This document shows, one piece after another, positions 30,214 through 62,344 of a stretch of DNA of 64,000 nt (positions within the stretch are counted from its first letter, which is position 1; each line of letters opens with the position of its first letter). The DNA is from Plasmodium relictum (Eukaryota; Apicomplexa; Aconoidasida; Haemosporida; Plasmodiidae), in NCBI RefSeq assembly GCF_900005765.1, contig NC_041687.1, positions 1,364,001 to 1,428,000 on the forward strand, given 5' to 3'. The notes below the pieces were generated by a model, which worked only from the letters and a program-made list of their open reading frames with translations, ran no database searches and was not told the origin of the DNA. The position numbers and the translations under genes are program-made.

Positions 30214-30813
30214 ATGAAAATAATATTAATTTTATCACTAATTTTATCTACTATAGTTGTAAACAGTTCTAAATTAATAGTTATAAGAGGTAACTTTGAA
30301 AAATGGAGCTTTTTTCAGTATTCATACTTGATAAAAAATAGTGATTTAGACCCGAATGACAAGGTTCATACCCATGTTGTAAACAAAATGATTACTGATT
30401 CTTACGAATCTCTTCCTTCGTTGTACAGAATTTATACAAGTTTGAATTATGATGTTACCCACATGCAAATTGATTTTGATGAGAGAATGATAATTAATGA
30501 TAAAATAACAATAGTGGGAACAGTCATAAGAAGAGAACATAATGTTGATACACTTGCAATATATGGATTAAGAGCTACAAATAACTTAATACCAAGTTAT
30601 ACATCTAGAGATGGAAATAAAATAGAATATTCAGTTAATAGTATTTCATTGGGTTATCCACAGCAAATCGCACAAAGTTGCAAAATTCATTTTAAATCTA
30701 TAGTCAAAATAAAGAATCGTAGAAATTACGGGATAAACTTTCTTATTGAAAATGACCCAACGTACGCACAACGTAAATTAGAAAATTTCATTTATTCTAT
30801 ATGTGGTTTGTAA
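30214..30813 (+). CDS. Small secreted protein of unknown function
   Basis: 199 residues from the first ATG in the frame (30214); the frame is open 29 codons upstream but begins with TTG, so that part is probably 5' UTR. Residues 1-20 (MKIILILSLILSTIVVNSS) are a textbook signal peptide. The remaining ~180 residues have normal complexity, with little Asn/Lys bias. They alternate hydrophobic and polar residues in a way that suggests beta strands (e.g. DKITIVGTVIRREHNVDTLAIYG). Only two cysteines follow the signal peptide, one in QSCKIHF and one four residues from the end. There is no membrane helix or GPI signal. I do not recognise a family. It could be a soluble secreted or vacuolar protein of an invasive or mosquito stage. 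It borders the 22 kb gene-free region. Whether another exon follows the stop is unknown. Confidence 0.75.
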   Translation: MKIILILSLILSTIVVNSSKLIVIRGNFEKWSFFQYSYLIKNSDLDPNDKVHTHVVNKMITDSYESLPSLYRIYTSLNYDVTHMQIDFDERMIINDKITIVGTVIRREHNVDTLAIYGLRATNNLIPSYTSRDGNKIEYSVNSISLGYPQQIAQSCKIHFKSIVKIKNRRNYGINFLIENDPTYAQRKLENFIYSICGL

Positions 30814-31559
30814 TTTTAAAAACAGTAAAAATGCTCAAATATATATATTATTAATAATTTTACAATATATAGATAATTCTATTACGTGTTGTAGATAATT
30901 GTAACTAAATATTAATTTAATTTATAAAATTTACAAAAATCAGAAATACAAATGCTCTTATAATGAAAATGGGAGAAAAAAAAATAGTAAGAACAATAAA
31001 ATAAATGAAGTGTTTTATAAAATAATATATTTAGTACTTTTATTATGACTCTCTTTTTTTTACTATTTTTACTGATTTATTAAAAATAGTTCTAAAATGC
31101 TACTGCTATTATTTAACTATCCAAATTAAATAAAAATTCCTTTTTAATATTATGCATATATTTTCTTAATTTTTTAAGAATAATTCTAAATAATTATTGT
31201 AAATACATTTCTTAATTACTCTAATGCATTAAGAATATTTTTTAAATACTTATTTATTAACTATTTTAGTTAGTAATTTTGAAGAACTGTTGAATATAAT
31301 ATTTTTAATCATTTTATTTAATGTATTGTTAATAATTTTTATGTATTATTATAATATTTTAGTTATCTTAAAGTTTTATCTAAGGAATAACTCATTTTAT
31401 TTTAATTTTTTCATCTATGGATATTTTTTTAATGTATGAAATGACTAAATATAAAACGTTGAATATTTAATATTTTAGATATTTAATATAGTGAGCAGAC
31501 AACATTTATAAAGTTTATATTTAGAAAATAGCTAATTTAAAATTGATTTCTTTTATAAA

Positions 31560-32018
31560 ATGAATATATTATCAGAGAAACTAGTTAGAAGATATCAAAA
31601 AGTACGAATGCCTTAATTTTCATTGAAAATTGTTTTTGTTTTCTATGTTTTCTCTTTTTAGTTGAAATGTTGGCATATCACCAATGTTTTTCAATACATC
31701 GGTAAATTCATTATCATATATATTTTATGTTTAAAACAAAGGAAACAATATTAAATAGTTATTAAACAATTTCTCCTTAATGCACGCGTATACACACACA
31801 TATATATTATATATATATGAGGTTCTAAAAGGTAAAAATAATATACAATTTAGCAATCATTAATGAACAAATGTTACAACTATTATTCCAATAAATTTTA
31901 TATATTAAATGTTCTTTCACAAAAATCAATCAAAAATAAAAATAATATTTCAGAGTCAATTTTTAGCCTTAAAATGAGAAAAACAAATTTCATACTTACT
32001 TTTTATAAACACATATAA
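31560..32018 (+). CDS. Possible small spliced gene (uncertain)
   Basis: Exon 1 at 31560-31601 (ATG AAT ATA TTA ...) ends at a GTACGA donor. After 60 bp with a strong pyrimidine tract and TTTTTAG comes exon 2 at 31662-31701, ending at GTAAAT. Together they encode MNILSEKLVRRYQKLKCW followed by HITNVFQYI. Two possible third exons keep the frame: from 31854 (ending NEQMLQLLFQ, stop 31892-31894) or from 31954 (ending TFYKHI, stop 32016-32018). The product would be 40-50 residues. The splice signals are better than average for this region and the peptide is less Asn-biased than random ORFs. I recognise no family, and exon 3 is undecided. It could be a small protein gene, a remnant, or chance. Confidence 0.28.
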
Positions 32019-33072
32019 AAAATTTACAAACTTATTTAAGTGAAATTTTCACATAAAACTAAAAATTTTTACCTTTAAAAAAAAAATTTTTTTTAAATGT
32101 GCTCGTACAAGAAAAAAAAAATTTGATGCGTCGAATGTAGCTCAAGAATTTTGAAGTGCATACGAAAATTTCAAAAAAGATTAAATTTATAAAAATATTC
32201 ATGGCATAAAAAAAATATATTTTTTTTAAATTAAATTACATTTTTTAAATGCATTTTTTTTTAAGCTTTTCATTACTCAGAAAAATAAAAATATAATTGT
32301 TAAAATAGAGAAGATATACTTATTAAATAATACTCACTTTTCTTAAATTGTTTTTTGCACATGTAAATTTTTTAATTTAAAAATAGTAACTCCAAAATGA
32401 AATAGAAATATAATAAAAATAAAATATATAAAAATATATATTTATTAAATTTAATCATTTTATATTGATCTTTTTTTTTTTTCTCGAAACATTTACTGAT
32501 TTTTTTTACTTTACTCCACATGAAAATAAATAAATAAATAATAATTTTTTTAATAATTCAAAACAAAAAACTGCATGAACCAATAAAAAAATATATTTTT
32601 TTGATAATTTTGCATTATTTACTCATACTTGAATATTTTGTATAATGAAATTTATAAGAAATAATGAATTAAAAAAACGATATATTTAATATGCATATGA
32701 TACATTATAAAATATGCATTTTCATCTTCTTATTTCAATATATATGTAACTTTTTTTTTTATGTAAAATAAAAGAATAAAATAATACTAAGGTTGAATAA
32801 ATTAATATCATTAAACATTAAATAAAAAAATATTAGTTAATTTTAAATGAAGTTTTAAACTTATTCAGAAGAATACACATATTTTACCTTTTATTCTTTT
32901 AAAAAAAAGGCATGTTAATTAGAATAAACAACTTTAAACGAATTAATATTCTTAACATTTAAAAGTATTTAATAACTATGTAAATACGTATGCAAAAAAA
33001 GAAAAACTGTAAAATATATTATTTTAATATTATACATAAAATATTTGTTTTGTATTTACATAATCTATTTTA

Positions 33073-33106
<34 letters not shown>

Positions 33107-33541
33107 GACTACTTTTTTGAGCATTTCTGTGAGACATCAAATTATCTAAATGCATTTTTCTAAAAAATGAAATGAAAACATAAAGAAAATTGAAATAGAT
33201 ATGATTCTATTATAAAAAGAATAGAACATTTTAATCAAAATCATCATTTAAAAAGAATTTATGTATATGCCATAAAAATATAATTTGGTGCATTTTTAAA
33301 AATTATATTGTATATTTAGTACTATTTATATTTTATTTATTTTTTTTTATTCTTTTCACTCCAGCATTTAAATGATTTTATCTATTCTCTATAAAAAAAA
33401 AATATATCTCAATAATTAATTTATATATTTTAAAAAAGGAAATACATGTTCATTAGAAACGAAATATATTAATATAATAAAAAAGCCCAATTTTTTTTTT
33501 TTTTTTTTTTTGTAGTGCTATTTATGTTCTTTTGAAATATA

Positions 33542-33560
33542 TTTCTCGATCTTCGAGAAA
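33542..33560. repeat. Perfect 8-bp hairpin
   Basis: TTTCTCGA and TCGAGAAA are perfect reverse complements separated by TCT. The element sits within the gene-free region and contains more G/C than its surroundings. Confidence 0.85.
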
Positions 33561-33839
33561 AAGTTATATTAAGATGCATTTTATCAAGAACCATAAAATA
33601 AAAAAAAAAAATATATGCATATATAATGAGAAGAGTTTTTTTTAAATATTTATAGAAAATAATAATAAAATGAAATAGTGTGTGCACAAAAAAAATTATT
33701 TTAAGCTTACGAAAGTAAAGCAAAAATTAAGAATAAAGAATAAAAAATGTAAATTATAAAATATTGAGAAAAATAATAAAAAACTTAAGAATATATAAAA
33801 GAGTACAATAATTTATAAGTAAATGAGTGAAATACTAAA

Positions 33840-34420
33840 AAAAAAAAAAAAAAGCAAATAATAAAAAGAAGAGTAAAATAATAAAAGAATAAAATTTTAT
33901 AAAAGAATAAGATAATAAAAGTGTAAACTATTATAAGAAAAAAATAATTAAAAAAAAATAATAAATATGTGAAAAAATAATAATAAAAATAAAATTGTAA
34001 AAGGTACAATAAAAGAATAAAATAAAAAAAGAAAAAATAAAATAATAAAAGATTATATAAAAGTATAAAAAAATGAAAAAAATAAAGAATATATATTAAA
34101 AGTAATAAAAATATAAAAGTATCAGAGAATAAAATAATAAAAGTATTAAACATTACAAAAAATAATAAGAATACTAAAGGAACAGAATAATAAAATAATA
34201 AAAAATTAAAAATAATAAAAGAATAAAACAATAAAGACTAATAAATTAATAAAAATATTAAAAAAATAAAGCAATAAAAGTGTTAAAATAATGTCAAAAT
34301 GTAAAATAGAAAAGTGTAAAATAGTAAAAGTATTTAAAAAAATTATAAAATAATAAAAATGTTAAAATTAATGTGAAATAATTATAAGTATTAAAATATT
34401 GAAATATTAAAAGGTAAAAA
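33840..34420. repeat. Degenerate AATAATAAAAG-type A-rich tract
   Basis: The plus strand is almost only A, T and scattered G, built from variants of TAATAAAAG/AATAAAATA. The minus strand of the same tract produces a 148-codon artefact ORF of Phe, Tyr and Leu. The repeat period is irregular. Confidence 0.65.
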
Positions 34421-37400
34421 TTTAAAAAGAACCATAGGTCTTTTCTGTCTTTATTTTTTTTTTTTATTATTTTTTATCCACATATGTTGCTATTAATAAA
34501 TATATATTTTATATAAAGCAAACTCTTTTTAATAATAAAAAAAATAAATTAATAAAATTTAATAATGCTAAAATAAATAATAATACTAATACATATAAAA
34601 TTCACATAAGATGGTATGTGATGATACATTATATTAATAATGAAAATATATATATTAATAAATAAAAGAATATATGTATAATGATATTAAACATGTTAAA
34701 AAAATTAATAAAAATAGAAAATATATATAATAATAAACAACAAAAAACAAACATACAACTGTGGTAAAAATATGTGGAGTTATAACGATAATAATAAAAA
34801 ATAAATAGGTGCATTATAATAAACAAAATTACATAATGCATGATAATAAATAGCTAAAATAAGTATTGGGAGATAAATAAAAATAAGATCAATTAAATAA
34901 AAATGTAATATATAATATTTTTAATAATGTAGAAATAAAAAAAAAAAAAAAAAAAAAGAAAAGTTACAAAACTGAAAGTACTAATAATAAAGAAGGAAAA
35001 TACTTTCTAAAATAGAAATAATAGTATTTAAAATGGGTATGACTATACCAAGTGCAACTACATATTAAGCTTAAGTATCATAGATAAGCATGCTGACATA
35101 AATAAAAGGTAATTATAAATTTTGTACCTATCTAAATATATGTAATCAAAAAAAAAGTAAATTTTAAATATTAAGGAAATTCAAGAAATATTCATCTCAC
35201 TAATAAATATTTTTTTACATATAAATTTTATGTAATTAGGATACTAAAAAAATATGAAAAAATGAAAAATAATTCATAATGATAAAATATCTCATTAATC
35301 AAATGTTATCTTTCTCTTAAGATGTCCCATATTGAATACCAAATTCTATTTTGCATAAATTTGTATTTTTATACTTGTATTCTTTGTTTAATTCAAATAA
35401 AGTTTCGTCAATGCTCGTATGTTTCGAGTATTTCTTTTCCAGGTACATATTTTATGTATATAATATCCTTTGCCATTAAATACCTTTTGATAAAATATTT
35501 TTTGCATTGATATTAATATAAATTTTATAAATTATATTTTTTTTCAAATTACGTGCAATTTCTTTTTTATTTTTACCCGTTAATATTTTTTTTGGTTCTA
35601 AATAGTCTTTTTAGTGTTTCTATTTAAATATATTCGCACGTGTTTGCATGATGCTTAATGTAATTTATTAATAGTTCTTCATTTAAGTTGTATGCTTTTT
35701 TTTTTTTTTTTAATACTATTATTATTAAATTATTTTTTTAATTCTTCGGATCTTCTTTTATTCTACTAGATATATTAATACTTTTTTTCAATAAAAAAAT
35801 TATTAAGAAATTGTTCTTTATTTTACCACTGATAATTTATTTATAACATAATTAGTTAAAATATTATACAACTTGCACTTTTACTAGTAACGTTACCTCA
35901 TTTTTTTTTTTAAGTTTAAAGCTTTTATGCAACTAATATTTATAAAAAATATCTTATAGTTAAATATAAAGTTAAAATAATCCCTAGTATTTATACTATT
36001 TATGTTAAAATTAAATAGAAAATTTTAATTAGAAATACAAATAAACATTCTTTTGAAAAATATTAATGGTAATGCAAAAAAATTGCGTTTTTATATTTAT
36101 ATAAAAATATTAAATGGAAGAAAGTTTAAAATAATTCTTTTTTGAAAAATTTTCCATAAGACTAAAAGATTTTGTTAATAATCATATTTTTATAACGATA
36201 ACAAATTATTTTTAAATTATAAATTTTACATATTGGTATAAACTAGCCTATGAATTATTTAATATTTAAAAAAAATTTTAATTTTAAAATATGCTAAATT
36301 AACTTTGCCTTCATCGTATGAATTAATAATTTATTCTAATGGAAATGATTTAAAATAATATTCTTTTAATTTATTGCTTAAATTTTAAGTTACAACGTAA
36401 TAAGAATGGGTATAGTTTATATTTTTAAAAAAATAAATACATAAAAACTATATAAAGTATTCTGTAATTTTATACAGTTTTATTGAATTGAAATATATAT
36501 ATAAGGTAAATGAACTCTTAATATAAAATAATATATATTAATTACATAGAAAATTAAATTTCAATAAATACAATTCTTTTTTGTATATTTATATTTAAGT
36601 TTCACTGTAAGAATTCTAATCTCTCATTATTCTTTTTTATATATCTATGAATTTCTCGAAAATTTTATTGCAATAGAAATAAGACTCCTATAATATTTAT
36701 TTATTTTGAAAAAAAAAATTTAAAGAAAGAAATATTAAAATAGATTAATATCGAGTAAAAATATGTTAAAAAAATATAAATTATGTATGTCTAAATTTAT
36801 TCCTGAAAAAAATTACAATTAAAAGAAATATACTATAGTTAAGAATAAAAAAAGCCAAGTTAATGGTTAAAATTAATATATTTATGTATTATATATGAGC
36901 ATTTATAAAAATGCTTAAGAAAAAATATATAAAGATAGAAAATATAACTAAATATAAAATTTACTACTATATATATAAATACAAAAAAGAATAAAAAACT
37001 TAAACAGTTAGAATATGAACTATATAACAAGTTAAAGAATCGAAGAATTAAAAAAAGATTGTATAAATATAAAGTATGAAAGTAAGTGCATGAATCTTTA
37101 AGAATTAAAAGTTGCTTATTTGTCAAATAATTTTTGTTTTTTTTAAGAAAATAGGTATAATTAAAAACTTTTTTGTAAATAAAAAAAAAAGCATATAATA
37201 ATTTTTTTGCGACAATAAAAATGTTCACTTTATAATGATTTAATTCTACAATAATTTAATTTTTATTTTATCATTTTTATTTTTATTTTATTTTTTTTTT
37301 GTCTTATAGTATTTAAACTTTTTATTTCTTTTTGTTGTTTACTTTCTTTTTATTTTGATTTACTTAAATATATTATTTTTTATTAAAATTATTATTATTT

Positions 37401-40400
37401 TCTTTTTTTTTCTTTTTAAATTTCACTACTTTTTAATTTATACTCTCCATGATGAATACTTACATTTCTTAAATTATTAAGATTCATATTAGTAATTTTT
37501 TTTATTTAGTGAATATTAGAGCTTTAATTAATAAAGAATATTATGAACTTTATGAAATTTTAGTAGAATAAAAAATAATATATGGTTTATCTGCGCACGC
37601 AGTATATTTTAGAAATTGTGTATAATAAATAGTATACACTAAAAAAAATATACTAAATGAATAATCTAAAAAAAAAATACGTAAACTAAAAAATACAATA
37701 CATTATTTTTATTTTGGTGGCATTTTTAGTAGTTTTGTAATTTTTTATTAATGAATGTGATAAAAAAATTTTTTATAGTATATGTATACATAAACGAGAA
37801 AGGTGATAATTTTTTTCAGAAAATAATTTTAATAAAAAAAAGTGAAAATTTTTCGTAAACTGTAATTAATTTCTATAAATTAATTATTGTATTCAAAATA
37901 AATAAAATATGGAATCAAAATATTTGATTTAAAAGGATTTTAATATTTATATAACTTAAATTTTTTATTTCATATTATTTAATATGAATATAAAGGTATC
38001 ATACATTATTTATAATAATTAATTTATAATAATGTTAGCAGAGATTATTTTATATATATTTTGTTACTTTATTTGCTCAATAATATATTAAAAAAAACCA
38101 ATAAACAGGTAAATTAATAAGCCAACTACTATATAATTAAGAATCTATTTGAAACTAATTTCTTTTCATATATATATTGGTTGTAGCTCATTTTTTTTTT
38201 AACTCTTATTATATGTTTTCATTATTTTAACATTTAAAAACTTTTTAATTCCTTACTAATATAACAAGACTAATTGTTTTTATCTTATTTTTTTTTTTTT
38301 GGATTTTTTTATGAATTTTTTTGAGTTTTTTTTTTTTTCTTATATCTAATTTTTTACCCTCGTTTTTTTTTAATCTTCATCTTTATGTATTATTAATTTA
38401 CAAATAATTTGGTGCATTTTTTTATACTTTTTTATATCTTTTTCCATAAGTAGTATATTGAGAAAGTTAGATATTTTATTATTCTTTACCTATTTTTTAA
38501 AGAAATCGGTATTTGTTAAAAAGCGAATCATATTGACTCTTAAAATGTAATATAATAGAGTTTTTATAAAATTATAAATAATTTAAACTTTTTTTCAAGA
38601 ATGAATTCACAATATATGAAAATCATGTATTTATATTTTGCTTCTTTATAATTGTACTATATACACATTTATATAATTATTTTTATATGTTTATACTTAC
38701 TAGTTTAATTCTAATATTTTTAATAATTCATAACATATATAATTATAAAAGTGTATTTTTAAATAAATATAAAATTTTTTTGATATATTTTTACTTCTTA
38801 TTTATATAATTAAGAATAAGCAACTATTATTATGTTAGGATTAATTATAAACTATTATTCTATTATATTTTTATTTTAGAAGAAAAATTCTAAGAATTTT
38901 CTAAAGCTTTCAATTTATGTAAAGATAGAGAAACTGAATATAGATAAAAAAAAAAAAATATATCATAATTAATATCTTTTTTTTATACTTATTAAAACCA
39001 TAAGGTGAAAAATAAGATCAAATAATTTATTTATGATAAAAAGTATATTCTATTTTCTTAAAATATTAATGATAAATACAAGAAATAAGAAATATAGAAA
39101 AAAGTGACTATACGTATATTTTCTAGTTTAAAAATAAAATATTACTTAATTTTAATAGGTTATTAACTGTTTGTTTAGATTTTGATTCTTAACTTTTTTT
39201 AAAGTAATAATCTTCATATTTACGTTAATAATTGTTTTATATTTTCTTTTCTTTCATGAAGAATTTACTTAAATAAAAAAAAATGGAAAAATTTTGCATT
39301 AAATACTTATATACTAGTTATTGTTAACTTAAGATTTTTATATAATGTATAAATTAATAGGAACTCGTTTACATAATTCTATGATATATTATAAAAAAAA
39401 TAAATACATATCTACTATAATTTTATTTTTTTTTATTTCTTTAATATTAAATTTTATTTGAATTTTCTGCATATTTCTTATTTATCAACTATTAGTATTT
39501 TATTATTGATATAATATTAGAATTTTTGCTACTATTCTCTGCAATTATTAAATTTATAAAATTCTTGTTTAATAAAAAATATATAAGATGATAAATTATT
39601 AATCCAAGATAAACTTTTAACTAAAATAATTATCGGTAGAATAGATATATCAAATTTTAATTTTTATTCTAATTAATCTTAAAATACAATTAGTTTTCTA
39701 AAATTGAAATAAAAGTCTTAATGTAGTTCTAGGATTATGACAATGCATGTATTCATCGGTATTTTGTTAATATTTTAGTTTTAATTAATTTTAGCATTTT
39801 AAGTAAATATATTACATAAAAATTCACAACAAAAAAATTAAATAAGGAGAATAACTTTTTTTCCCCTTCTATTTGAAACTTAATCAAATATTTAGCTTCT
39901 AATGTAAGAATTAATTATATTTTTAAAATATAGTTTTTTTTTCTATATTTTCTTTCATACTCAAATGTTCTTATGAAAATCTTTTATTACTATCATATGC
40001 AATATCCCTTCTAAAAATTTTCCATATTATGATTTGTATTGCAAAAATTTATTTTTTTCTAAAAAATAATAAGAGTGTAATTTCAGTTATATGATAAAGA
40101 TTAAAACAATTAAGAAAAAATATATTTCACTATTATCTTATCTTATATAAATATAATTATTTTGTTTTCTTTTTGAGTTCGTTATATACTTAAACATTAA
40201 AAAAAAATTAGTTATCGAATCAATGAAATGGAATGTAAAGGAATATTTCATTATTACAAATGCCTTAAAATATTATTCTTTTTTAAAAGTATTTCTTTAA
40301 AAATTATATAAATTTTTATATTTTTATTTCTTGTTAGAGAGTCAAAGCAATATTAATTATGTGTATTATAATTTTTCATTAATTATTTTTTCTCATATAA

Positions 40401-43400
40401 TTTCAAATATATTTTTTGATTACTACTTTAAATAATATTATTATATCTTTTTTCTTTCTGTTCTCATATAATTAGTTGTAATTATGCTTTTAATTCCTTT
40501 TTACATAAAATAGTGAATACTAATCATTTAATCATTATTTTTTATACATTTCTGCGTATTCTTACAAGTACATTTAATAAATTAAGACATTTTAATATGT
40601 AAAAAATTTTTTAAGCAATTTCCATTATATCTATAAAGAATTAAAAATATTTTTAACAAGTGAAAAAATCTGCGTACATATGTTCATGTCCTTGTACATT
40701 TAAAGTAAACTGTGTTTCGATATGTGGAAATATATTAAAAAAACAAAGATACACCTTTGTTTCATTTTATGTATTGTAATATATATAATTTACTATTAAT
40801 TATAAATGTATTAAATGCAAATTTCAGAATTATAAAAAAAAAATTAAACTTTCACATTTTATGTTAATTTTGTATATAAAAGATTATTTTAAAAAATTTT
40901 TTCATTTTAAATGAGTATCCATAATATATTTAAAATTATACAATATATTGTTCCTATAAACTTGTTTTAATTTTTTTTTTTATTCCTCATATTAATAATA
41001 ATAAATATTTTTCTTTATGCATTATAAAAATAATTGGATGAGTTATAATTGAATATACATTAAAAATTTTTAAATATAATGAATGAATAGAAAATTTGTA
41101 TACTTTTATATTATTTTTTTTTTTTTTTTACTCATTTAAAATAATGTAAATACATAAATATTCAAGTTAATTTTTAAAAAAATTTATAAATTTTATCCCT
41201 TTTATAATTTTACGCTAGAATTTCTATTTCGAGATATATAAAATGCCATGTCTTTTATACTTTTATTTTAAATAATAGTTATATATGTATAAAGAAATAA
41301 TCAATCAAGTTTTTAATTTATTTATTTATATATAAACATATAGAATGAAAAAAGAAAGAAAAGTATATCCTCTTTTTCATATGTATATATATATTTATAA
41401 TGAATTTGTCATGTACATTTTTTTTAATACGTGAATATAAATTTAATATAAATTTTTTTTATACAATTAAGGAAAGTGTTATATTAAAGTGAAAATTAAT
41501 AAAAAAAGATTGCAAAATAGAAAGTGAAAATTTTTTAATTTTATTTTTACCCTTTTTAATTTTAAGGATATTAATATAATTTAAAATTTATATATTAAAA
41601 AAGCAATAATCTCTTTGTAACATAATATGTGGTTGTTTATAATTCATTCAGTTATATATTAGAATATTTTTTGTTTTTTTATTTATAAAATGTCATTATA
41701 TATTTTAATTTATTTTTCACTTACATAACTTTTTTTAATTGTTTTGAAAGAGTTCTATTCTTAAATTTGTAATTTTTTTAAGATCTATATTATTCTATTC
41801 AAAAAACATTATGAATGAAATACTTTTGGATATTTCTTATGAAAACTATTAAATTTTATAACTCATAGAATATTTTTATTTTTTTTTTTTTTTGAATATG
41901 AAAATAATATTATAAGAGATAATTCTTATATATATTTAATCTATATTAATGAAAAACTCATAAGCATATATATATATATAGATGCTACTTTTTTATTTTT
42001 TTTTTCTATATATTTTTTAAATGAATTTATTTGATTTAATTGCAAGATTAATGCCATAAAACCTTAAAAAAATATTTTTTATAGTATTATATTTAAAATT
42101 ATTATTTTTGAATCAATGATAATTTAATAAAGAGTAGAACTTTTATTTTGGATATAAGACACTAATAGACATAAAATAAAAGTTAGAAGAAATTAAAAAT
42201 ATAATTGTAGAAAATTATTAGATAATATATTTTCTTTAAATTTTGTATTATATGAAACAATCATTTATATTATAAAAAAGCAGTATAAAGAATTTTTATT
42301 TTAACAGTCTTGGAACAATACATGGTATCTGAGCATATGAAATAAAAATAAAGCAACAATTATCTTTTGAATTGCCATAATGAGCTAATAGTCAAATAAA
42401 TATTAAATACCATGGAATACATATTAAAAAAAAAATAAAAAGACAAATATTAAGTGGAAAGAAATTTTTAATTTTTTCTCAGAAAATACACGAAATTGTA
42501 CACTTAAGAGTTTAATATGAATTATTATATACATAAAAACATATTTCTCTAAATAATTAAATAATTCTATAATTATATCTTCTATTTTTCGTACTATATA
42601 TTTTAATTTTTTATTGTCATTTATCCACATAACAAAAGGAATTGTAACAACAGTTGCTTAATGCTTTAAATAGAAATGTTCTATAAGAATAGTATTGGAA
42701 ATGATTTTGTAAATATATAAATATAGAGTTATATCACAATTGTACATATAGCTTAATTTATAAGCCTTAATTGAAAAAAAATATTTTTATGTAGTGAATT
42801 ATGAAATTGGGATTTTGGTCAATGTATGATACTGCAGACTTATTTTTATTAATATTAATAAAGAATATTACATAAATAAATTATAACTTGTTCATGTATG
42901 CACAGAAGATATAACACTATAGTTTGTATACAATAGAATATACAAAAAAAAAAAAAAGGTTTTCTATAAATTTTTTTTGTACATTACTTAATAACGCGTG
43001 TATAATAACTTTGAAGTATAAGTATATTAACTAAGAAGATATATAAATAATAATATTATTATTGAGTATACTTTATAAATGATTAAAAATCTTCGTAACA
43101 TATAATATATCAAGTAGCAAAATAAGTATAAATCTATGTAACACTTTTTATTAATTTTACTATATAAAATACTATAGAAGTGCTAGAACGATCAATTAAT
43201 GAATCATATTTTGAACTGAAATTTTATTAAACAAAAAGATAATCATTTATTAAATTATATTTTTAATATATATGCTTACCATTTTTATTATATATAACTT
43301 TTTTATTTAATTTAAAACAAATGGTGAAGTTCAATATTATAAAATATATATTAAAAAATATGTATCTAAAATATATGTTAAAGGATTCAAAAAATAATGG

Positions 43401-46400
43401 CATTGTTTAGTTCAATTCCATGCTTTTATATAGAAGATATTTCTGTTTTAAAAATACAATGTAAGAACTTTGTGAGTAAAAGTTATTTTATTTTATTTTT
43501 TTTGATACTTTGGAACAAAAATAAAAAAAAGTTCTAAAGAATTCCATTTCTTGTATCTGTAATATTGTAATTTATTACCAAGTAAATGAAATTATAAGAA
43601 AAAATATATTATAAACTAAAAGGAATAAAAAAAAGGAGATAATTATAGCTAAAAAGTATTAAATATAATATAAAAGAATAAAATTTTACCTTTTTATATA
43701 ATTTTAGATAAAATAGAATTTGCTATCAATTATTATCTATTACATTCGTAGTCAAAAAAAAAAATAAAAGAATAAAAGAATAACTTGAAAATTTTATATA
43801 TTTATATTTTTTTAATTCTTTTAAATTATTCTATATTGCTGTTTTTATTTTAATGAATTTATAGTAACAAAAAATCAGGATAACAGAAAATTCTGTTCAA
43901 AACTTTTTTTTCATTCTTTCTTGTTAATACTATTTTATATAAAATAATTTTTCCTTTATTTACAAATATTTTTTTTTTTTACAATTTTTTTTAATTTTAC
44001 TCTTTTACTAACATTTTATGCTTTTTCTTATTATATTCCTTTAATTACTATAACATACATTTTAGTCAACTTGTTATAGTTGAAAAAACTTTCGCAAATA
44101 TCAAAGAATATATTTGAATCGTTTGTATGCAACAAATTTTACAAAATATAACCTTAAATAAATCAGAATTTTTTAAAATATAATATTTATTTCATTAAAA
44201 GAGAATGATTATTATTTAATGCATTTTTCATAAATCTTAATGTTTCAGATTAACAAAAAATTGAAAATTAAAGAGATAATTACTTTGATACAATAGGATA
44301 AAAAGCATGCAGTTTTTGTAAATGTATAACAATACTACTTAAAAATCTTTAAATTGTATTTATTCATTATTGCTATTAAAATTTTAGTGTATTTAAAAAA
44401 AAAAATTTAATTATATAAACATTATTCAGCATAAAATGTAAATAACCTAGTGAAAAATAACATTCTTGTTTGAAAATGAATTTTACGAATTTCTGAATGT
44501 TAGATATATTCATGTAAAAATATGTTAAACACATCTATATCATAATATTTAAATATTTTTTTGCTTATTTATTTCAATATAAAAAGTTTTGAAAAAAATA
44601 TAATATAACGAAAGGGAGATACAATATTTAATTTAAATGAAAATTTTTTATTTTATTAATATAATTTCGCATTATGTTTTTCTTTTTAAAAATTTTGAAT
44701 ATATGCTTTATCCCTATAATTATCTTCATTTAAAAATGCTAAATTTATTTTTTTCTTTTTTCATTTTTCTTCTCTAAATTTTTTCTCTTTTTCTTTTCAT
44801 ATTTTTCTCTTTTTTTTTTATAAATTTTTTTGCAATACATAACTTATTAACCTTTATCTTAATTGTAATTTTATTTTATTCTAAGGATCAAACAAAAATA
44901 TGTATGAGGAAAACAAAGATAAATGTGTATTATTAAAAATAATTAAATTTTTATAGAAAATTATATTAAGTTACAGATTATAAGCATGTATGAAGTATCT
45001 TATATATATAAATTATGGTTATATAAAAGACTATTGTAGTATTTTAATTAATATTATTACAACATTCTAGTATATTTAAATTTTGAATAATTACAACCTT
45101 AAAAAAAAAATTAATATAAGAATAAAAGTAAGCCATACGAATATTAGTTATTGAACTGTGATTAAAATGTAAGATTTTCATTATTGCTATGATAATTTTA
45201 AATAATAAACTTAATAATTTTAATAAAAAATAAAAAAAATTTATAAAAAAAATGGTTAACTAGTGTGTTATTATAATTACATAAGGAATACTAGTACATA
45301 CACATGGCATATTTTTACATAATCCTTTGTGTAAAAAAAGAGAAAAAAAATTATTTAGATTAAAAACATATATGAATAATCAGATGCTACATATAATCAA
45401 AAGGAGAAAATCATACATAAGGTATTTATTTAATACACTGATGTTAAATTACAAATCACAAAAATTTAATTTTTAATCATTATACATTTCTAAAAAAGTT
45501 ACATTTTTCATATGCAACTCTAGCGTTGTATCATATTAAGCTTAATTAAATTTTTACATATTAAAAATTTGCATTATGCAAATTTTAAAATTATGTCATT
45601 TATTATAAGTATTTTTATTTGATAAAATGATTTGGTTCATATCAATAAATAGCATATATATAATACATTTTAGTAAAATAAATTATGTAACTAAGAAAGA
45701 TAAATACATTTCTTTATAAAAAAAATTAGATTGATAAAATATTTTAAACACTGAATAATTCCTTCTCACTTTAAATATTCAAAATTTTAAATATTAAGAA
45801 ATATATATATACTTTTACTTCTACTTAATATAATTACATTTGAATCAGGAAATACAGTTTAATATCCATCCTTAAGTTGTGTTTGTAATCAGCCATGATA
45901 ATAATAAGTTAAAACAATTATTTAATAAATATATCAGAAACATAAATTATTTGCATATAAATTTTTCTTTTCATGAAATTGTGATATTAGATAATAAATT
46001 TTTAGCCCTTATTTTAATGAATTTTTTACGCGTAAAATCTAAAGAAAGAAATAAAAAAAATTTTAATAGAATAAATATGTAGCTAGCATATTATAATTAC
46101 ATAAGTAAATATTTATAAATGTGTTTTTAATATTTTCATTTATATAATTAAGGATTTGGAAGCATTTTTTTTTTTTTTTTTGTTCCAAATACTTTTAATT
46201 CACAATTCAGCAGAGAACATTATAATATATGTAAAAGTAATATAATCTAACTCAAATACCCAAAATCCAATTAAAAAACGAAATATATCTAGTATTGATG
46301 TATTTGATTATTTACTAACCTATAATATGTTTAATTTTCATTATGTTTTATTAGAAAGTATCTTCTTTTTTTATTAGTTCATTTACTTTTTCATAATTTT

Positions 46401-49400
46401 TAGTAAAAATTTAATTATATCTTTTTTTTCAAAATAATGCTATATATATATTTTAAAAGAATTATGAATTTATAATAATAATTATTTCTTAGCTTTTAAA
46501 TAATTGAACAATATAAAATTATGAAATGTTTAAACAGATATAATAACTTATAGTTTGCTCAATATAACAACTCTCTATATAAATATAATATGATAAACAT
46601 TTATAATTTCATGTAAAAGGAAATTCTATAATGCCATAAAGTGTATTTTCTTCTTGGATTTATTTATATTTTTATTTAAATAAATGATATTCTATTTTGA
46701 TAAAAATTATATAATGTTTGCATATCAACCGCATATAAAAATGGAATGATAGAAAAAAATATATAATATATTTTAATTCTTCCATTTCATTTCGTTGATA
46801 TCTGCAATTTTTCTCTAACACTTACTTTTCCATATATTGTCATTACATATTGTATATGGGATATATTTTTATTAAAATTTTATTCAAATAATTTGTTAGA
46901 TTAAAGTACGGGATAATTACAACCCATTTTTTTTTTTTTTATGGATAACTTTAAAATGTTGAAGAATAAATTTTTATGTATAAGAAATATAAAAATTACT
47001 AATAAGAAAAAACAAATATCTACTTTAAGTCCTAATAAATTTAAATAATTAATAATTTATGATAATTCCCTAATATTAAAAAAAAAGAAACTTTATTATA
47101 TGGAATTTATGTTTTAAATATAGAGAATTAAAAATTATAATTTAAACTATGTAAATAAGAAAATAAATTATTGTATTTGGTATCAATGAAAATAAATTTT
47201 AGATATTTATGTCATGTTTTCTTTATCTTATATCTTCAATATATAGTATTGTTATAAAATAATTAATGCAATGATAATTAATGATTAAATAATTTATATT
47301 GTCTTCATTTTCTTAATTATAATTAGTCCTTTATATATTATTAATTTTTGATAAAATATTAATTAAATTAATTTCCAAATTTTAATGAAAAAAATACTAA
47401 AATTTATCAATATAAAATATAACCTATTTCAAAACATTTTTAATATATATATTTTAACAATTAGCATATGTAATAACCTCATACGTACTATATTTTATTT
47501 CTAAATTATAGACACTTTTTGAATTTAATTTGTTACTTCATGATTGTGAATAATTTTTATAATTAAAATAGATATGTATTTTTCCTGAAATTTACGAAGT
47601 CTTTTTTTTTAAGTTAAAAATTAACATAGTTAATATTTATTAAGATAAAGATATTTTATATACATATGTTTATTTACCATACTAAAAAATAAAAGAATTA
47701 TTGGAATAAAAACCTAATAATAGAATATTAAATATGAGAAGTAAAATAGAAATTTTTTTTTAATTGCTTATTTATAAAATATACGAAATATTAAATAACC
47801 TTTATATTTAGTTAAAAATAAATTTATCCCATGAAATATCTTATGTTATTTAAATTAAATGAGATATATTTTTATATTTATTATTGCATATATTAAATGT
47901 ATAAACTCATTATGATTAAATTCTTTTTTAGAATATGAATATATTTGAAAAATAATTTTATTTTACGAATTATATATATATATATATATATGTAATTTAT
48001 TTTAGTTTAATATTTATTCTATATATTCATTTTTTTTATAAATTTATTTCTTTTAATATTATATCCACAACTGATAAAAAAGTTTATTTAATGCTAATTT
48101 ATAAATTTCAAGGAATATATGAGAATTAAAAAAAAATTTCACTTTATGTAAACCTTTTTTTTTCCTATAATGTTATTATTTTACTAGATTCTTCTGTATA
48201 TTAAAAGAAAGACAAATATATATATATATATGTGCATTCATTAAAATATATAAAATTTTTATTTAATATGATTACTTTCTTCTATATGAATGAATCAAAA
48301 ATCATTTTTTTTTTTTATTATTTTTAAAAATAGAAGATTATATATCAGTTATACAATAGCAAAATTTGTAAAATATGAAAGATATAATTTTAAAACTATC
48401 AAAATTAAATGATGCCAATATTCTTTCAAAATTTTATATAAATATTTTTATTTATTTCTTTACTATGTTTTTTCTAAACATTTAATTAGAAAATTTAAAT
48501 ATATTAAATTTTCTTGTTATTGAAAATTTTCCATTGTTACAAAGAAAAAAATGGTTCTTTTTGGAATAACAACTTGTACATATTAATATTTATATTAAAT
48601 AATTTTGCAAAAATTTAATTTTTTCAATTGATTACATACAATAGTTTGTAATTACTTAAATATCATTATCCATTAAATATTTTTTTTAAATATTTCTTTT
48701 GTTTATATAGTCATCCTGCCTTTTGAATAACAGAAAAATATATAAATATTCGTAAAAATTAAAAATTTATAAATTTTCATATTTCTATGATAAACATTTT
48801 AAATATATCAAGAATAATTTAAAAATTAGTTCTCTCTAAATTCCTCATAAAAACAATTGATTTTTCAATGGTCTATGAATTAGACATTAAATACAATATA
48901 GTTTATACTAAAAATACAAAATTAACAATTTTTCATATTAGAAAATTTATTAATCTTAAATTAATTTCAATTTTTCTTTATAAAGGAAAATAAATTTTTT
49001 TTTCGGTATTCTATCTATTAAGTATATTAATAAAATATATTCACTATGCATTATAAATTGTTAATTTTATAAATATTTATTTAAGAAAATTATTTACATT
49101 ATTTTGGAATATATATACATATATAAATTTTACTAAGTTATGAAAGAAATATCTATATGTAAAAGTAAAAGAGTTATTCTAATTTAACAATTAAATAACA
49201 AATCTTAAAAAACTTTATAAAAAATTCTACATTTTACCATTACAATTATTAAATGTATACGAAAAAGTTCATTGTCCAATAATACCTGTATTAATTTCCA
49301 ATATAAAATATGAATAAATATAAAAATTATTTTGTATTAAGTGTGCATTAACATATTTTATTGTTGTAAATTTATCCAGAAGAAATTAAAAGAGCAGCAA

Positions 49401-49618
49401 ATAAAATACACCTATTTCACGAACAATTTTTTAAGTATTAGAATTTACATATATTTCAATTTTTATTAATACACATATGTATATAATGCTTTTCATTTTA
49501 CTTATACATTGAATAAATAAACGTTGAAACATATTTAAAATTATACAGTTGTTAAAGGTATATTATATGTTGTAAACAATTAAAACTGTTAAAATTTTTA
49601 AAAAACTACATTTTACGT

Positions 49619-49630
49619 TGCATGCATGCA
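49619..49630. promoter_or_regulatory. Overlapping TGCATGCA motifs
   Basis: TGCATGCATGCA contains two overlapping copies of the palindrome TGCATGCA. In P. falciparum this is the known DNA target of an ApiAP2 domain (PF14_0633, AP2-EXP). It is about 4 kb from the end of the chromodomain gene and far from any gene start, so use as a promoter site is unproven. Confidence 0.4.
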
Positions 49631-50429
49631 AATAGCAATTGTTGAATTAGTTGAAGAATTTATTTTTACTACAAATGAAATTTTCAGAGTCATTAAATTA
49701 AATATTTGAAAATAATGATATACTTAGAAATAAATATTTATCATATTCCACATTTCTCTAGTACGTTATTATTTTAAGATAAACACATATATATATATAT
49801 GTATGTATATATCACCTTTTTCTGATATATTTCCTTTTTATTAAAAAAAACATCTTTTTGAAAGTTTTGAAAAATTTGTTAAAAAAAACGTTTTCTCTAA
49901 TGAAGGAATACAAAAAAAAAAAAAAAAAGTGTAAAAAATAACATGTTAAAATTAATTTTTTGTAAATTTTATTTTGAAAATTTTCATAATTTTATTATTT
50001 ATTAGTTCTAATTATTTATGAGTTGTAACCACTAAAATAAACCAAATCAAAAATACGTGACTAAAATTATCATTCAATTTTTTTTTAATTTTTTATATAC
50101 TAAAGTATAGATGACTACCAAAATGGTCCTTTGGTATATTAAAAATATAATTCATTTGCATTTTATAGCATATTATTATTTTTATTAAATTAATCTCTAT
50201 TATATAAAAAAATGTTTCATTCACCAAATATATTTGCATTTTAATAATATTTTAATATATTAAATATATTTTTAGAGTACTAATATGTACGTTTATAGAA
50301 TATCTGAAGGTAAATAACATCATATCAAATTAAGATTTTTCGTATGCATAATGTACTTAAAACATTATTAATTCTAAATCTTTTTTATTCTAAATTTTAT
50401 GTGATTTTAACTTCAATGAAACTATAAGT

Positions 50430-52140
50430 TTTTTTTTATCAAAAAAATTACAAAAAAAAAAAAAATATATAATATAAATAATTATGCTCCATAAAAACAA
50501 TGAAAATTCGTCAAGGATTTACACAAAAAAAAAAAAAAATACACTGCATTCATTTTTTTTGAATTATTCCTACGAATAAAAAAGTACAAAATTATAATAA
50601 AAACAGAAAATTAAAATATATTTCATTATAAATATTTATATATATAATTTACAAAATCATGTTAAATAAATGTACATTAGTACATAAAATATACAAAAAA
50701 AAAAATGTCTCATTTGTAAAATTTTTTTTTATAAAATCTGATAAATTTTTTTTCTTGATTAAAAAGTAAAAATACAAATAAAAAAAATAAAAACAAAACA
50801 ATACGAAAAAATTATAATAAAATGTAATAAGAAACAATAATCAATACAGTAAAACAAAATGAACTTATAAAACCTCTTAAAAACATAAAATAAAAATAAA
50901 AATATATAAAATATATCAAAACAAAAATACTATAAAAAGGTTCATTCATCTACTTTTCTATTAAAAACATTGTTTTTAGATAGTAGAAATACTATTATAA
51001 CAAAGTAAAATAAATCACAACTATAATATGATACAAAAATGAAGAGAATACAGAATAAAGTTCAAAATTTTAAAAAATAGTAAAAAATAAAAAAAATATT
51101 AAAAAATGTAGTAAAATTGAAATTAATATAAAACATAAAATTATGAAAAATGTTTATTATTATGAAAAAAAAATTCAATAAATTAAAAATAACATAAAAT
51201 AAAAAAGCATGTGGATGCAATTTATTTTATGTCTTCTTGTTTATATATCAACAACATTTAAAAATGTATGAAATACATAAAAAAGAATAAAAAAAATTAA
51301 AAGATACAATTAAAAAAAAAAAATTAAATATGTTATAAAATATATATTATAAAATGAAATAAAATGAAAAATGACAGAAAATGTAGAATTCATTAAAATT
51401 AAAATTTATGAAATAAAATATATAAAAATGCACTGAAATAAAACGATCACATGATGTTATTTATGCCATATCTCCATGTAATTTTAATGTAAATACCTAA
51501 CATTAATGTAATAAAATAAAAGAATAACATGAAATATAACAAAAAATAGTAAAATAATTGTATGAAATAATAAATTAAAAATAAAAAAAAAAAATATATA
51601 TATATTATTAAATACCATAAAATGTGTAGGAAAATCATTCATAATATTAAAAAAATAATAAAAATATAAAATATTCAGAAAATGTATAAAAAACCAATAT
51701 AATAATGAAATATAATGAAGTTATATAAAGAATATTAAAAAATAATATGAAAAAATTTAATATATTCTATACAATATGAAAAGTAGATACATGAATTTTT
51801 TTATTCAATCACCAACTTATATACCACATTATATGAATAAAATCATAAAAAAAAACAAAATCATTGGTTAAAATATCAGTAAAAAAATGAATATTATATT
51901 ATAAAATGTAGTAAATAAAGTAAAAAATATGTTAAAAAAAACAATAAGAAATGTGCACGTGGCCTGATATATTTTATTTATAGAATATGCAACCGTATAA
52001 ATATATTTATATTAATATATTAAAAATATCATAAAATAAATAAATGTTAATAAAAAAAAAAAAATGAAATTTATAAAATACAATAGAAATAATAATAAAT
52101 ATATTAAAATACAAGAAAAAAATAAAAAAAACATATGTAT
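50430..52140. repeat. A-rich degenerate tract (1.7 kb)
   Basis: Plus-strand A-rich DNA with frequent AAAATATAAAAT, AAAAATAA and TATAAAAT variants, strongly asymmetric between strands. It produces only Phe/Tyr/Leu artefact ORFs on the minus strand. There is no clear fixed period. Confidence 0.5.
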
Positions 52141-53193
52141 ATAACATCATTTATTATATATTCACAATAGCATTTTTGTATAAATAAATTTGCAGTAATG
52201 TAATAAAATAACAAAATTAAAAATTTGTAATATTATAAAATAAGTATGTAAAATGTAATTTTTATTTTATTACCAAAATATAAAATATATATATAATCTG
52301 CATTTTATATTTTTATGTATGAATCATTTTATTCTTTTATCATAAAATATTTCTTTTTTAAAAAATTTTCTTCTTACCACTATTCTGGTTATAATAATAA
52401 ATGAAATAATTCCATCTTGATAAGAATGGTATATTTTTATCAGTAATATTTTTAATAAAACTTTAAAAATATGTTACTATTTATAAAATACTCCTTTTTC
52501 ATTACAAAAATTAAATTAAATAGAATTATTCTTTTATGAAGAAATTTTGTATATATTTCATTGAAATAAAAATAACAAATATATTTTTCTTTCTCACTAC
52601 TTAAAAGTTATTTTAGAAAAATATAATCTTTTTTAATTTAAGATATTTAATATTGTAAAGGTATAATCTTCTAAGGTATATACATAATTTGTGAATTTCA
52701 TAATAATGTAAATATAAAAATTAACTATATTAAGCTTTTATCACTGTATCATAACACTCTTTTTATGGCAAAATTTTATATTTTTCTTTTTAAAAAATAA
52801 TAAATTTTTTATAAAAAAAATATTTTTAATTTTGCCAACATGCGATGCCATTTATGCATTTGATTAATAATACAGTTTCCAAATATCTTTTATAATTTTA
52901 TTAATCTTTGTAATTTTTATGAGTATTATTTTTTTTTATACTTTTTTTTTTTTTTTTTTTTTTTTGTAAAATATTCCTTTAAAAAAATTAACGTCTACAT
53001 AATATTAGTTATTATGTCGTATTATAATCATCTTAAAACGTTATTCAAAATAAAAAAAAATAAAAGATTTTAAGAATTCTTTAGCTCTTATTTACTCCTG
53101 ATAAAGTATTATGTTCAAATTATAGGAAAAGTTCAAAAAAAATTTTAAATGATATAATTTCATTAAAATATGGTTAGAAGAAGAAATGTTTTA

Positions 53194-62248
<9,055 letters not shown>

Positions 62249-62344
62249 TTTTTTAAATAATATTTTTTATTGATATTTTTATAAGATATAAAAACAAATA
62301 TGTTATATATATATATTTATATATATACAATATGTGCATAAATG

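What the first reader, a model, noticed from the sequence alone, without database searches (positions are those of the whole stretch)
30814..53193. A 22 kb gene desert inside an otherwise compact gene block
All other gaps in the window are at most 2.6 kb, but here about 22 kb lack any ORF with protein-like composition on either strand. Base composition is like ordinary intergenic DNA, without a single dominant tandem repeat. Possible explanations are a long non-coding RNA locus, a lineage-specific insertion or relic of an old rearrangement breakpoint, a (peri)centromeric region, or many tiny exons. From memory the two flanking large genes lie close together in P. falciparum, which would make this an insertion; I am not certain of that.
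Basis: partly seen in the sequence, partly recalled or inferred. Interest (0 to 1): 0.75.

Follow-up and report, generated by a model that had tools for sequence, protein, structure and literature searches.

The report
Gene-free stretch inside parasite chromosome
A 22,000-letter stretch in the middle of a bird-malaria parasite chromosome carries no recognisable genes and looks most like the worn-down remains of DNA of the kind normally found near chromosome ends; whether it does anything is unknown.

Summary
Window 30814-53193 (22.4 kb, no N) lies between the 3' ends of two convergent genes and has no coding signal beyond chance; the next largest gap in 84 kb is 2.9 kb. The genome fits Plasmodium relictum. 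The stretch is not centromere-like, gives no credible Rfam match and no apicoplast-type ORF, and no reverse-transcriptase or RBP-end match lies in it. It holds two degenerate copies of dispersed non-coding repeats, E1 (37524-38120) and E2 (42802-43206), whose other copies sit mainly on small contigs, 7 of 13 of which carry reverse-transcriptase or RBP matches. Following them led to two other chromosome-internal gene-poor stretches, on C12 and C14, with far more repeats of this kind (21%, 40%; 3.2% here; 0.34% in core control, 0.79% of its non-coding part). Best reading: an old, eroded internal island of subtelomere-type DNA, now inert. Rivals: a long intergenic stretch that merely caught two repeats; a non-coding RNA locus; an assembly fault. 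Synteny, RNA and chromatin could not be tested here.

The parts
30814..53193 (.). gene-free stretch between the 3' ends of two convergent genes
   Evidence: no coding signal above chance, no N; where searched apart it gave only weak AT-rich matches outside E1/E2
30214..30813 (+). left flanking gene: 199 aa, N terminus looks like a signal peptide (by eye), single copy, no match in the databases tried
   Evidence: coding score 82.7; only itself in the genome; no hits
53193..62266 (-). right flanking gene: chromodomain near the N terminus, SP-RING/MIZ-like stretch at the end of the long exon, last small exons down to about 53193
   Evidence: Chromo 42.9 bits over cut-off 25.1; zf-MIZ 24.8 bits, under its cut-off 33.5; 3' exons read by eye from the sequence, coding scores 15.0 and 12.7
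37524..38120 (+). E1: degenerate copy of a dispersed non-coding repeat
   Evidence: 68% over 647 columns to C12:1729298-1728672 (212 bits), 75% over 290 to C349 (185-191 bits), 9 non-self matches in all; found again by profiles from C14/C12/small-contig copies at up to 44.1 bits, none in the reversed desert
42802..43206 (+). E2: degenerate copy of a second dispersed non-coding repeat
   Evidence: 79% over 207 columns to C4:33353-33148 (165 bits), 12 non-self matches in all; its tail found again by four C14 repeat profiles at 9.8-16.1 bits
33590..34430 (+). A-rich low-complexity tract, the most AT-rich part of the desert (GC 10.4% over 500 bp from 33914)
   Evidence: its many matches on other chromosomes look low-complexity

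Best explanation
The stretch is most likely an old chromosome-internal island of subtelomere-type DNA in the avian-malaria parasite Plasmodium relictum. At some time repeat-bearing DNA of the kind found on the small, chromosome-end-type contigs was placed, or piled up, between two convergent core genes. It has since decayed so far that only two dispersed repeats (E1, E2) can still be recognised and any gene or retrotransposon it carried is gone. It is probably inert now and tolerated because it lies between two gene ends, so its length interrupts no promoter of either flanking gene. Shown: the gene-free stretch, the two repeats, the graded series C14 > C12 > C9 in repeat content. Inferred: common origin of the three stretches, direction of decay, lack of function, that the small contigs are subtelomeric, the species name.
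For: E1 and E2 are the only non-simple repeats found; 6 of 9 non-self matches for E1 and 9 of 12 for E2 lie on small contigs. Of those 13 different contigs 6 carry RVT_1 matches (C349, C70, C250, C284, C292, C300) and 3 RBP matches (C309, C250, C284), together 7 of 13; one more ORF there matches SICA_C just over its cut-off. Repeat cover at >=65 bits against a 90-kb library of such loci: C14 39.7%, C12 21.2%, C9 desert 3.2%, 14 core control sequences 311 of 91,642 bp (0.79% of their non-coding part, none over 71 bits), reversed desert 0. Of 13 profiles made from C14 and C12 repeats, 6 find E1 or E2 again and nothing else in the desert. The held C14 stretch leads into an open RBP gene, and an RT relic lies 16 kb before it. 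Composition lies between core gaps and small-contig non-coding DNA (GC 0.157 vs 0.133-0.138 and 0.169). Both flanking genes point into the desert.
Against: About 97% of the stretch has no detectable similarity to the library. No RT, RBP or other family relic was found in it: none of 90 RVT_1 and none of 24 RBP-end matches lie there, and 49 protein fragments gave no tblastn hit. The library was partly chosen because its loci match E1/E2, so the 3.2% is biased upwards; reversed C14 gave one match (87 bp, 78.8 bits), so the 65-bit cut is not perfectly clean. The direct C9-C14 match (55 bits) lies within the shuffle null of up to 59.9. E1 and E2 could not be shown to be one family. The k-mer classifier is undecided (mean p 0.51; core 0.33, small contigs 0.72). 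Two repeats could have landed independently in long non-coding DNA.
Confidence: 0.42

Rival explanations
1. A long intergenic stretch of other origin (ancestral, or grown by small insertions) that received two dispersed repeats independently because nothing selects against insertion there.
For: The parts searched apart, 38141-42779, 43301-47900 and 34450-37499, gave only weak AT-rich matches, at most 73, 73 and 91 bits; only two repeats in 22 kb.
Against: Other gaps in 84 kb are under 3 kb; composition differs from the window's other gaps; no such repeat above 71 bits in 92 kb of core control.
Confidence: 0.25
2. A locus for one or more long non-coding RNAs kept by selection.
For: Length and place do not exclude it; telomere-associated lncRNAs are reported in P. 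falciparum (PMC3218844, search listing only).
Against: No Rfam match at the gathering score and only one at chance level, E 1.3; fold z-scores like those of other gaps (z < -3 in 1.2% of 742 windows against 1.7% of 344); no GC-rich island.
Confidence: 0.14
3. An assembly fault: non-coding DNA from elsewhere joined in, or a wrong join between two contigs.
For: The published P. relictum genome is an Illumina draft of 498 scaffolds (PMC5880244, section 2 part 1); reads could not be examined.
Against: No N; parasite-like composition; no longer second copy among the matches scored; the repeat-rich comparison stretches score far higher in repeat cover.
Confidence: 0.12
4. An undetected gene of many tiny exons, or a fast-evolving gene.
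For: Two short segments just pass score 12 (31629-31715 and 37422-37493, minus strand).
Against: Counts are close to simulation, and exons of 33 and 36 aa in the same window were detected; 10 of the longer ORFs have no Pfam match over a cut-off.
Confidence: 0.05
5. A centromere or pericentromere.
For: Long gene-free AT-rich DNA.
Against: Lowest GC 13.7% per 2 kb and 10.4% per 500 bp, while C2:160.3-163.0 kb falls to 2-10% over 2.7 kb; centromeres are positionally conserved (PMC5880244, passages) and, from memory, the P. falciparum chromosome 11 centromere lies far from this block.
Confidence: 0.02

Closest known systems
Chromosome-internal heterochromatic / gene-family islands of Plasmodium (P. 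falciparum, P. knowlesi; PMC5853956, passages)
   Same: chromosome-internal place; repeats shared with chromosome-end-type contigs
   Different: no family gene found in it; HP1 occupancy unknown
Ty3/Gypsy LTR-retrotransposon fragments of P. relictum and P. gallinaceum (PMC5880244, passages; PMC9141347, passages)
   Same: 6 of the 13 small contigs with E1/E2 relatives also carry RVT_1 matches
   Different: no RVT_1 match in the desert; E1/E2 are not shown to be LTRs (the P. relictum LTRs given are 253 and 257 bp)
Plasmodium telomere-associated lncRNA loci (PMC3218844, search listing only)
   Same: long non-coding DNA in a Plasmodium genome
   Different: not at a chromosome end; only short AT-rich tandem arrays seen; transcription unknown

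Membership tests
chromosome-internal subtelomere-type island | repeats shared with chromosome-end-type contigs | tested here: met
   E1 and E2 only; 709 bp = 3.2% at >=65 bits
chromosome-internal subtelomere-type island | members of subtelomeric gene families | tested here: not met
   none of 24 RBP-end matches in the desert; no tblastn hit from 49 fragments. pir, surf and fam families were not searched genome-wide. Hence 'relic of', not 'member of'
chromosome-internal subtelomere-type island | HP1 / H3K9me3 coating | not testable with these tools
   needs ChIP
Plasmodium centromere | about 2-4 kb of extremely AT-rich DNA (97% or more, recalled) | tested here: not met
   lowest GC 13.7% per 2 kb; contrast L005 on C2
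LTR retrotransposon | reverse transcriptase domain | tested here: not met
   90 RVT_1 matches in the genome, none on C9
long non-coding RNA locus | stable transcript | not testable with these tools
   no RNA data held
long non-coding RNA locus | known structured RNA | tested here: not met
   Rfam, fold z-scores
apicoplast-DNA insertion | organelle tRNA/rRNA or long ORFs with TGA=W | tested here: not met
   no tRNA, no Rfam match at the gathering score, longest code-4 ORF 150 aa and low-complexity

The most novel reading that the evidence does not exclude
P. relictum keeps a set of chromosome-internal, nearly gene-free domains (C9, C12, C14) of common origin that serve as chromatin or non-coding RNA loci, the C9 one being under selection although its sequence has lost all gene content.
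Probability: 0.1. Interest if true: 0.75.

Novelty: new variant of a known kind. Interest (0 to 1): 0.38.

Why it matters
Plasmodium core chromosomes are compact and syntenic; a 22-kb gene-free stretch inside one is a clear exception. If it is an eroded island, then with the repeat-rich C14 locus beside an RBP gene and the intermediate C12 stretch it would give a graded series showing how subtelomere-type DNA enters the chromosome interior and decays. If it is transcribed or heterochromatic it would be a new kind of internal domain in avian malaria parasites. E1 and E2 give a handle for finding other such places.

Tried and rejected
Coding-potential models, ORF counts under codes 1 and 4, Pfam on 10 desert ORFs, Rfam in two modes, a tRNA scan, fold z-scores, GC islands and tandem repeats gave no gene or known RNA. 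Repeats inside the desert, of which one search shows the 20 largest of 41 direct families and 25 of 255 inverted pairs, are short AT-rich matches. E1 against E2 gave alignments of 56-74% on both strands, no sign of one family. Protein search with the left gene found nothing, and the database may lack Plasmodium.

Literature: I found no coordinates or synteny for the block in searches for PF3D7_1140600/700/800 (3 papers, passages of one read), PF3D7_11403 to 11409 except 11407 (1 paper, not read) and PRELSG_09 / PGAL8A tags (19 papers, 10 listed, passages and one section part of one read). None of the 13 titles (Plasmodium, 'gene desert') names such a stretch; passages of one were read. Searches were other listings.

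Considered: that the P. relictum-only core gene PRELSG_0909800 (PMC5880244, passage) might be the left gene. The number suggests a place nearer the chromosome start, but no annotation is held, so it stays open.
Full report
What is there. The window is C9:1364001-1428000 of a 22.6-Mb genome in 514 contigs. Size (22.6 Mb published), many reverse-transcriptase fragments, an uninterrupted RVT_1 match at C6:520026 (the paper puts the most complete P. relictum element in the core of chromosome 6) and many RBP matches fit Plasmodium relictum SGS1 (PMC5880244, passages and section 2 part 1; PMC9141347, passages). The species name is an inference; the published draft has 498 scaffolds, not 514.

The desert. 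Between the stop of a 199-aa gene with a signal-peptide-like N terminus (30214-30813, +) and the 3' end of a chromodomain gene (about 53193-62266, -) lie 22.4 kb without coding signal. In the 84 kb around it the next gap is 2.9 kb. At a looser threshold two segments of 24 and 29 aa break it up, but simulated sequence yields such segments too (0.7 on average, at most 2). ORF counts equal simulation. The model has some sensitivity to small exons: it finds two of 33 and 36 aa in the window at score 12 or more, outside its training set. Both flanking genes end at the desert, so it is not an upstream control region of either.

Not these. Lowest GC is 10.4% per 500 bp and 13.7% per 2 kb, unlike the 2-10% GC stretch on C2 that looks like a centromere. 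No Rfam family reaches its cut-off, the fold signal equals that of other gaps, there is no tRNA, no organelle-type ORF, no RVT_1 match and no RBP-end match in it.

Two repeats. Whole-genome searches with the two halves gave many matches (131 and 107 reported; 39 of 787 and 39 of 374 candidates scored), by my reading mostly AT-rich low-complexity. Two stretches stand out. E1 (37524-38120) has 9 non-self matches: 6 on small contigs, one within 2.6 kb of the end of C10, two inside C12. E2 (42802-43206) has 12: 9 on small contigs, one 33 kb from the start of C4, one in C13, one in C14. Stretches 38141-42779 (33 of 33 candidates scored), 43301-47900 (40 of 46) and 34450-37499 (40 of 198) gave only weak matches, at most 73, 73 and 91 bits. 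The remaining parts were searched only within.

The company they keep. Of the 13 different small contigs with E1 or E2 matches, 6 carry RVT_1 matches and 3 RBP matches, together 7 of 13. Held stretches also carry fragments that look, by my reading, like integrase, retropepsin and RNase H and an ORF with a SICA_C match of 23.0 bits against a cut-off of 22. The strong E1 partner on C12 lies in about 8.7 kb without coding signal of 12 or more, 300 bases of it N, next to a tubulin-family gene; from 1734001 the sequence held reads N. A weak E2 match and an RT relic pointed to C14, where 1706.1-1719.8 kb is free of coding signal of 12 or more and leads into a gene with a 2,579-aa open frame that I call RBP on a weak TIGR01612 match (19.9 bits, far under its cut-off) and its transmembrane end. 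That C14 lead was chance-level as a direct match (55 bits against a shuffle null up to 59.9), but the stretch proved full of repeats shared with the small contigs (up to 550 bits); one unit gave 139 matches at the 40 places scored of 1350 candidates. The two other internal weak matches (C12:1301072, C13:1057570) lie in gene-bearing DNA. So 2 of 4 internal matches lead to gene-poor stretches.

Graded series. Against a 90-kb library of 15 chromosome-end-type loci, repeat cover at 65 bits or more is 39.7% in 13.7 kb of C14, 21.2% in 8.6 kb of C12, 3.2% in the C9 desert, 0.34% in 92 kb of core control (0.79% of its 39 kb of non-coding DNA; best match 71 bits), and 0 in the reversed desert and in 10 simulations; reversed C14 gave one match of 87 bp. 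Several of the core controls had themselves been fetched through AT-rich matches. Of 13 profiles built from C14, C12 and library copies, none from C9, 6 find E1 (up to 44.1 bits) or the tail of E2 (9.8-16.1 bits) and nothing else in the desert; there was nothing in the reversed desert and one core match at 8.6 bits. The library was partly chosen by its match to E1/E2, which favours the C9 figure. A k-mer classifier (cross-validated AUC 0.87) puts the desert midway between core gaps and small-contig non-coding DNA (0.51; 0.33; 0.72); its core set included the centromere-like C2 locus.

Reading. The best-supported account is an old internal island of subtelomere-type DNA, eroded to two recognisable repeats and now inert. 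The main rival is a long non-coding stretch that caught two repeats. The present data cannot separate these well: about 97% of the stretch is of unknown origin. Non-coding RNA function and an assembly fault stay open for lack of RNA, ChIP and read data.

What it resembles. Chromosome-internal HP1 domains exist in P. falciparum and, in number, in P. knowlesi (PMC5853956, passages). This stretch shares place and repeats with such islands, but no family gene was found in it and HP1 is untested; it is filed as a possible relic, not a member.

Noticed in passing
G000:C14:1706100-1721700 (L056, L040, L057): Chromosome-internal stretch of 13.7 kb without coding signal of 12 or more, 40% covered by repeats shared with small contigs, leading into an open RBP-like gene; an RT relic lies at C14:1689478-1689948.
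   Followed up: partly
G000:C12:1725300-1734000 (L013): About 8.7 kb without coding signal of 12 or more beside a tubulin-family gene, 21% covered by the same kinds of repeats; the sequence held beyond reads N.
   Followed up: partly
L057:1180-1830 and many small contigs: A dispersed repeat of about 600 bp: 139 matches at the 40 places scored of 1350 candidates, often in adjacent inverted copies; its nature is unknown.
   Followed up: partly
window 53193-62266 (-): One gene appears to join an N-terminal chromodomain with an SP-RING/MIZ-like stretch (under the Pfam cut-off, cut at an exon end) and long asparagine runs. P. falciparum PF3D7_1140700, a chromodomain protein seen in H3K9me3 pull-downs (PMC7145593, passages), may be the orthologue (recalled, not tested).
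   Followed up: partly
L005 (C2:159760-163302): 2.7 kb at 2-10% GC, probably the centromere of that chromosome.
   Followed up: no
window 46714-46833: A stretch that folds well on both strands (z -4.4 and -3.5), overlapping the chance-level Rfam match.
   Followed up: no
window 30214-30813 (+): Small gene with a signal-peptide-like start, single copy in the genome, no relatives in the databases tried.
   Followed up: partly
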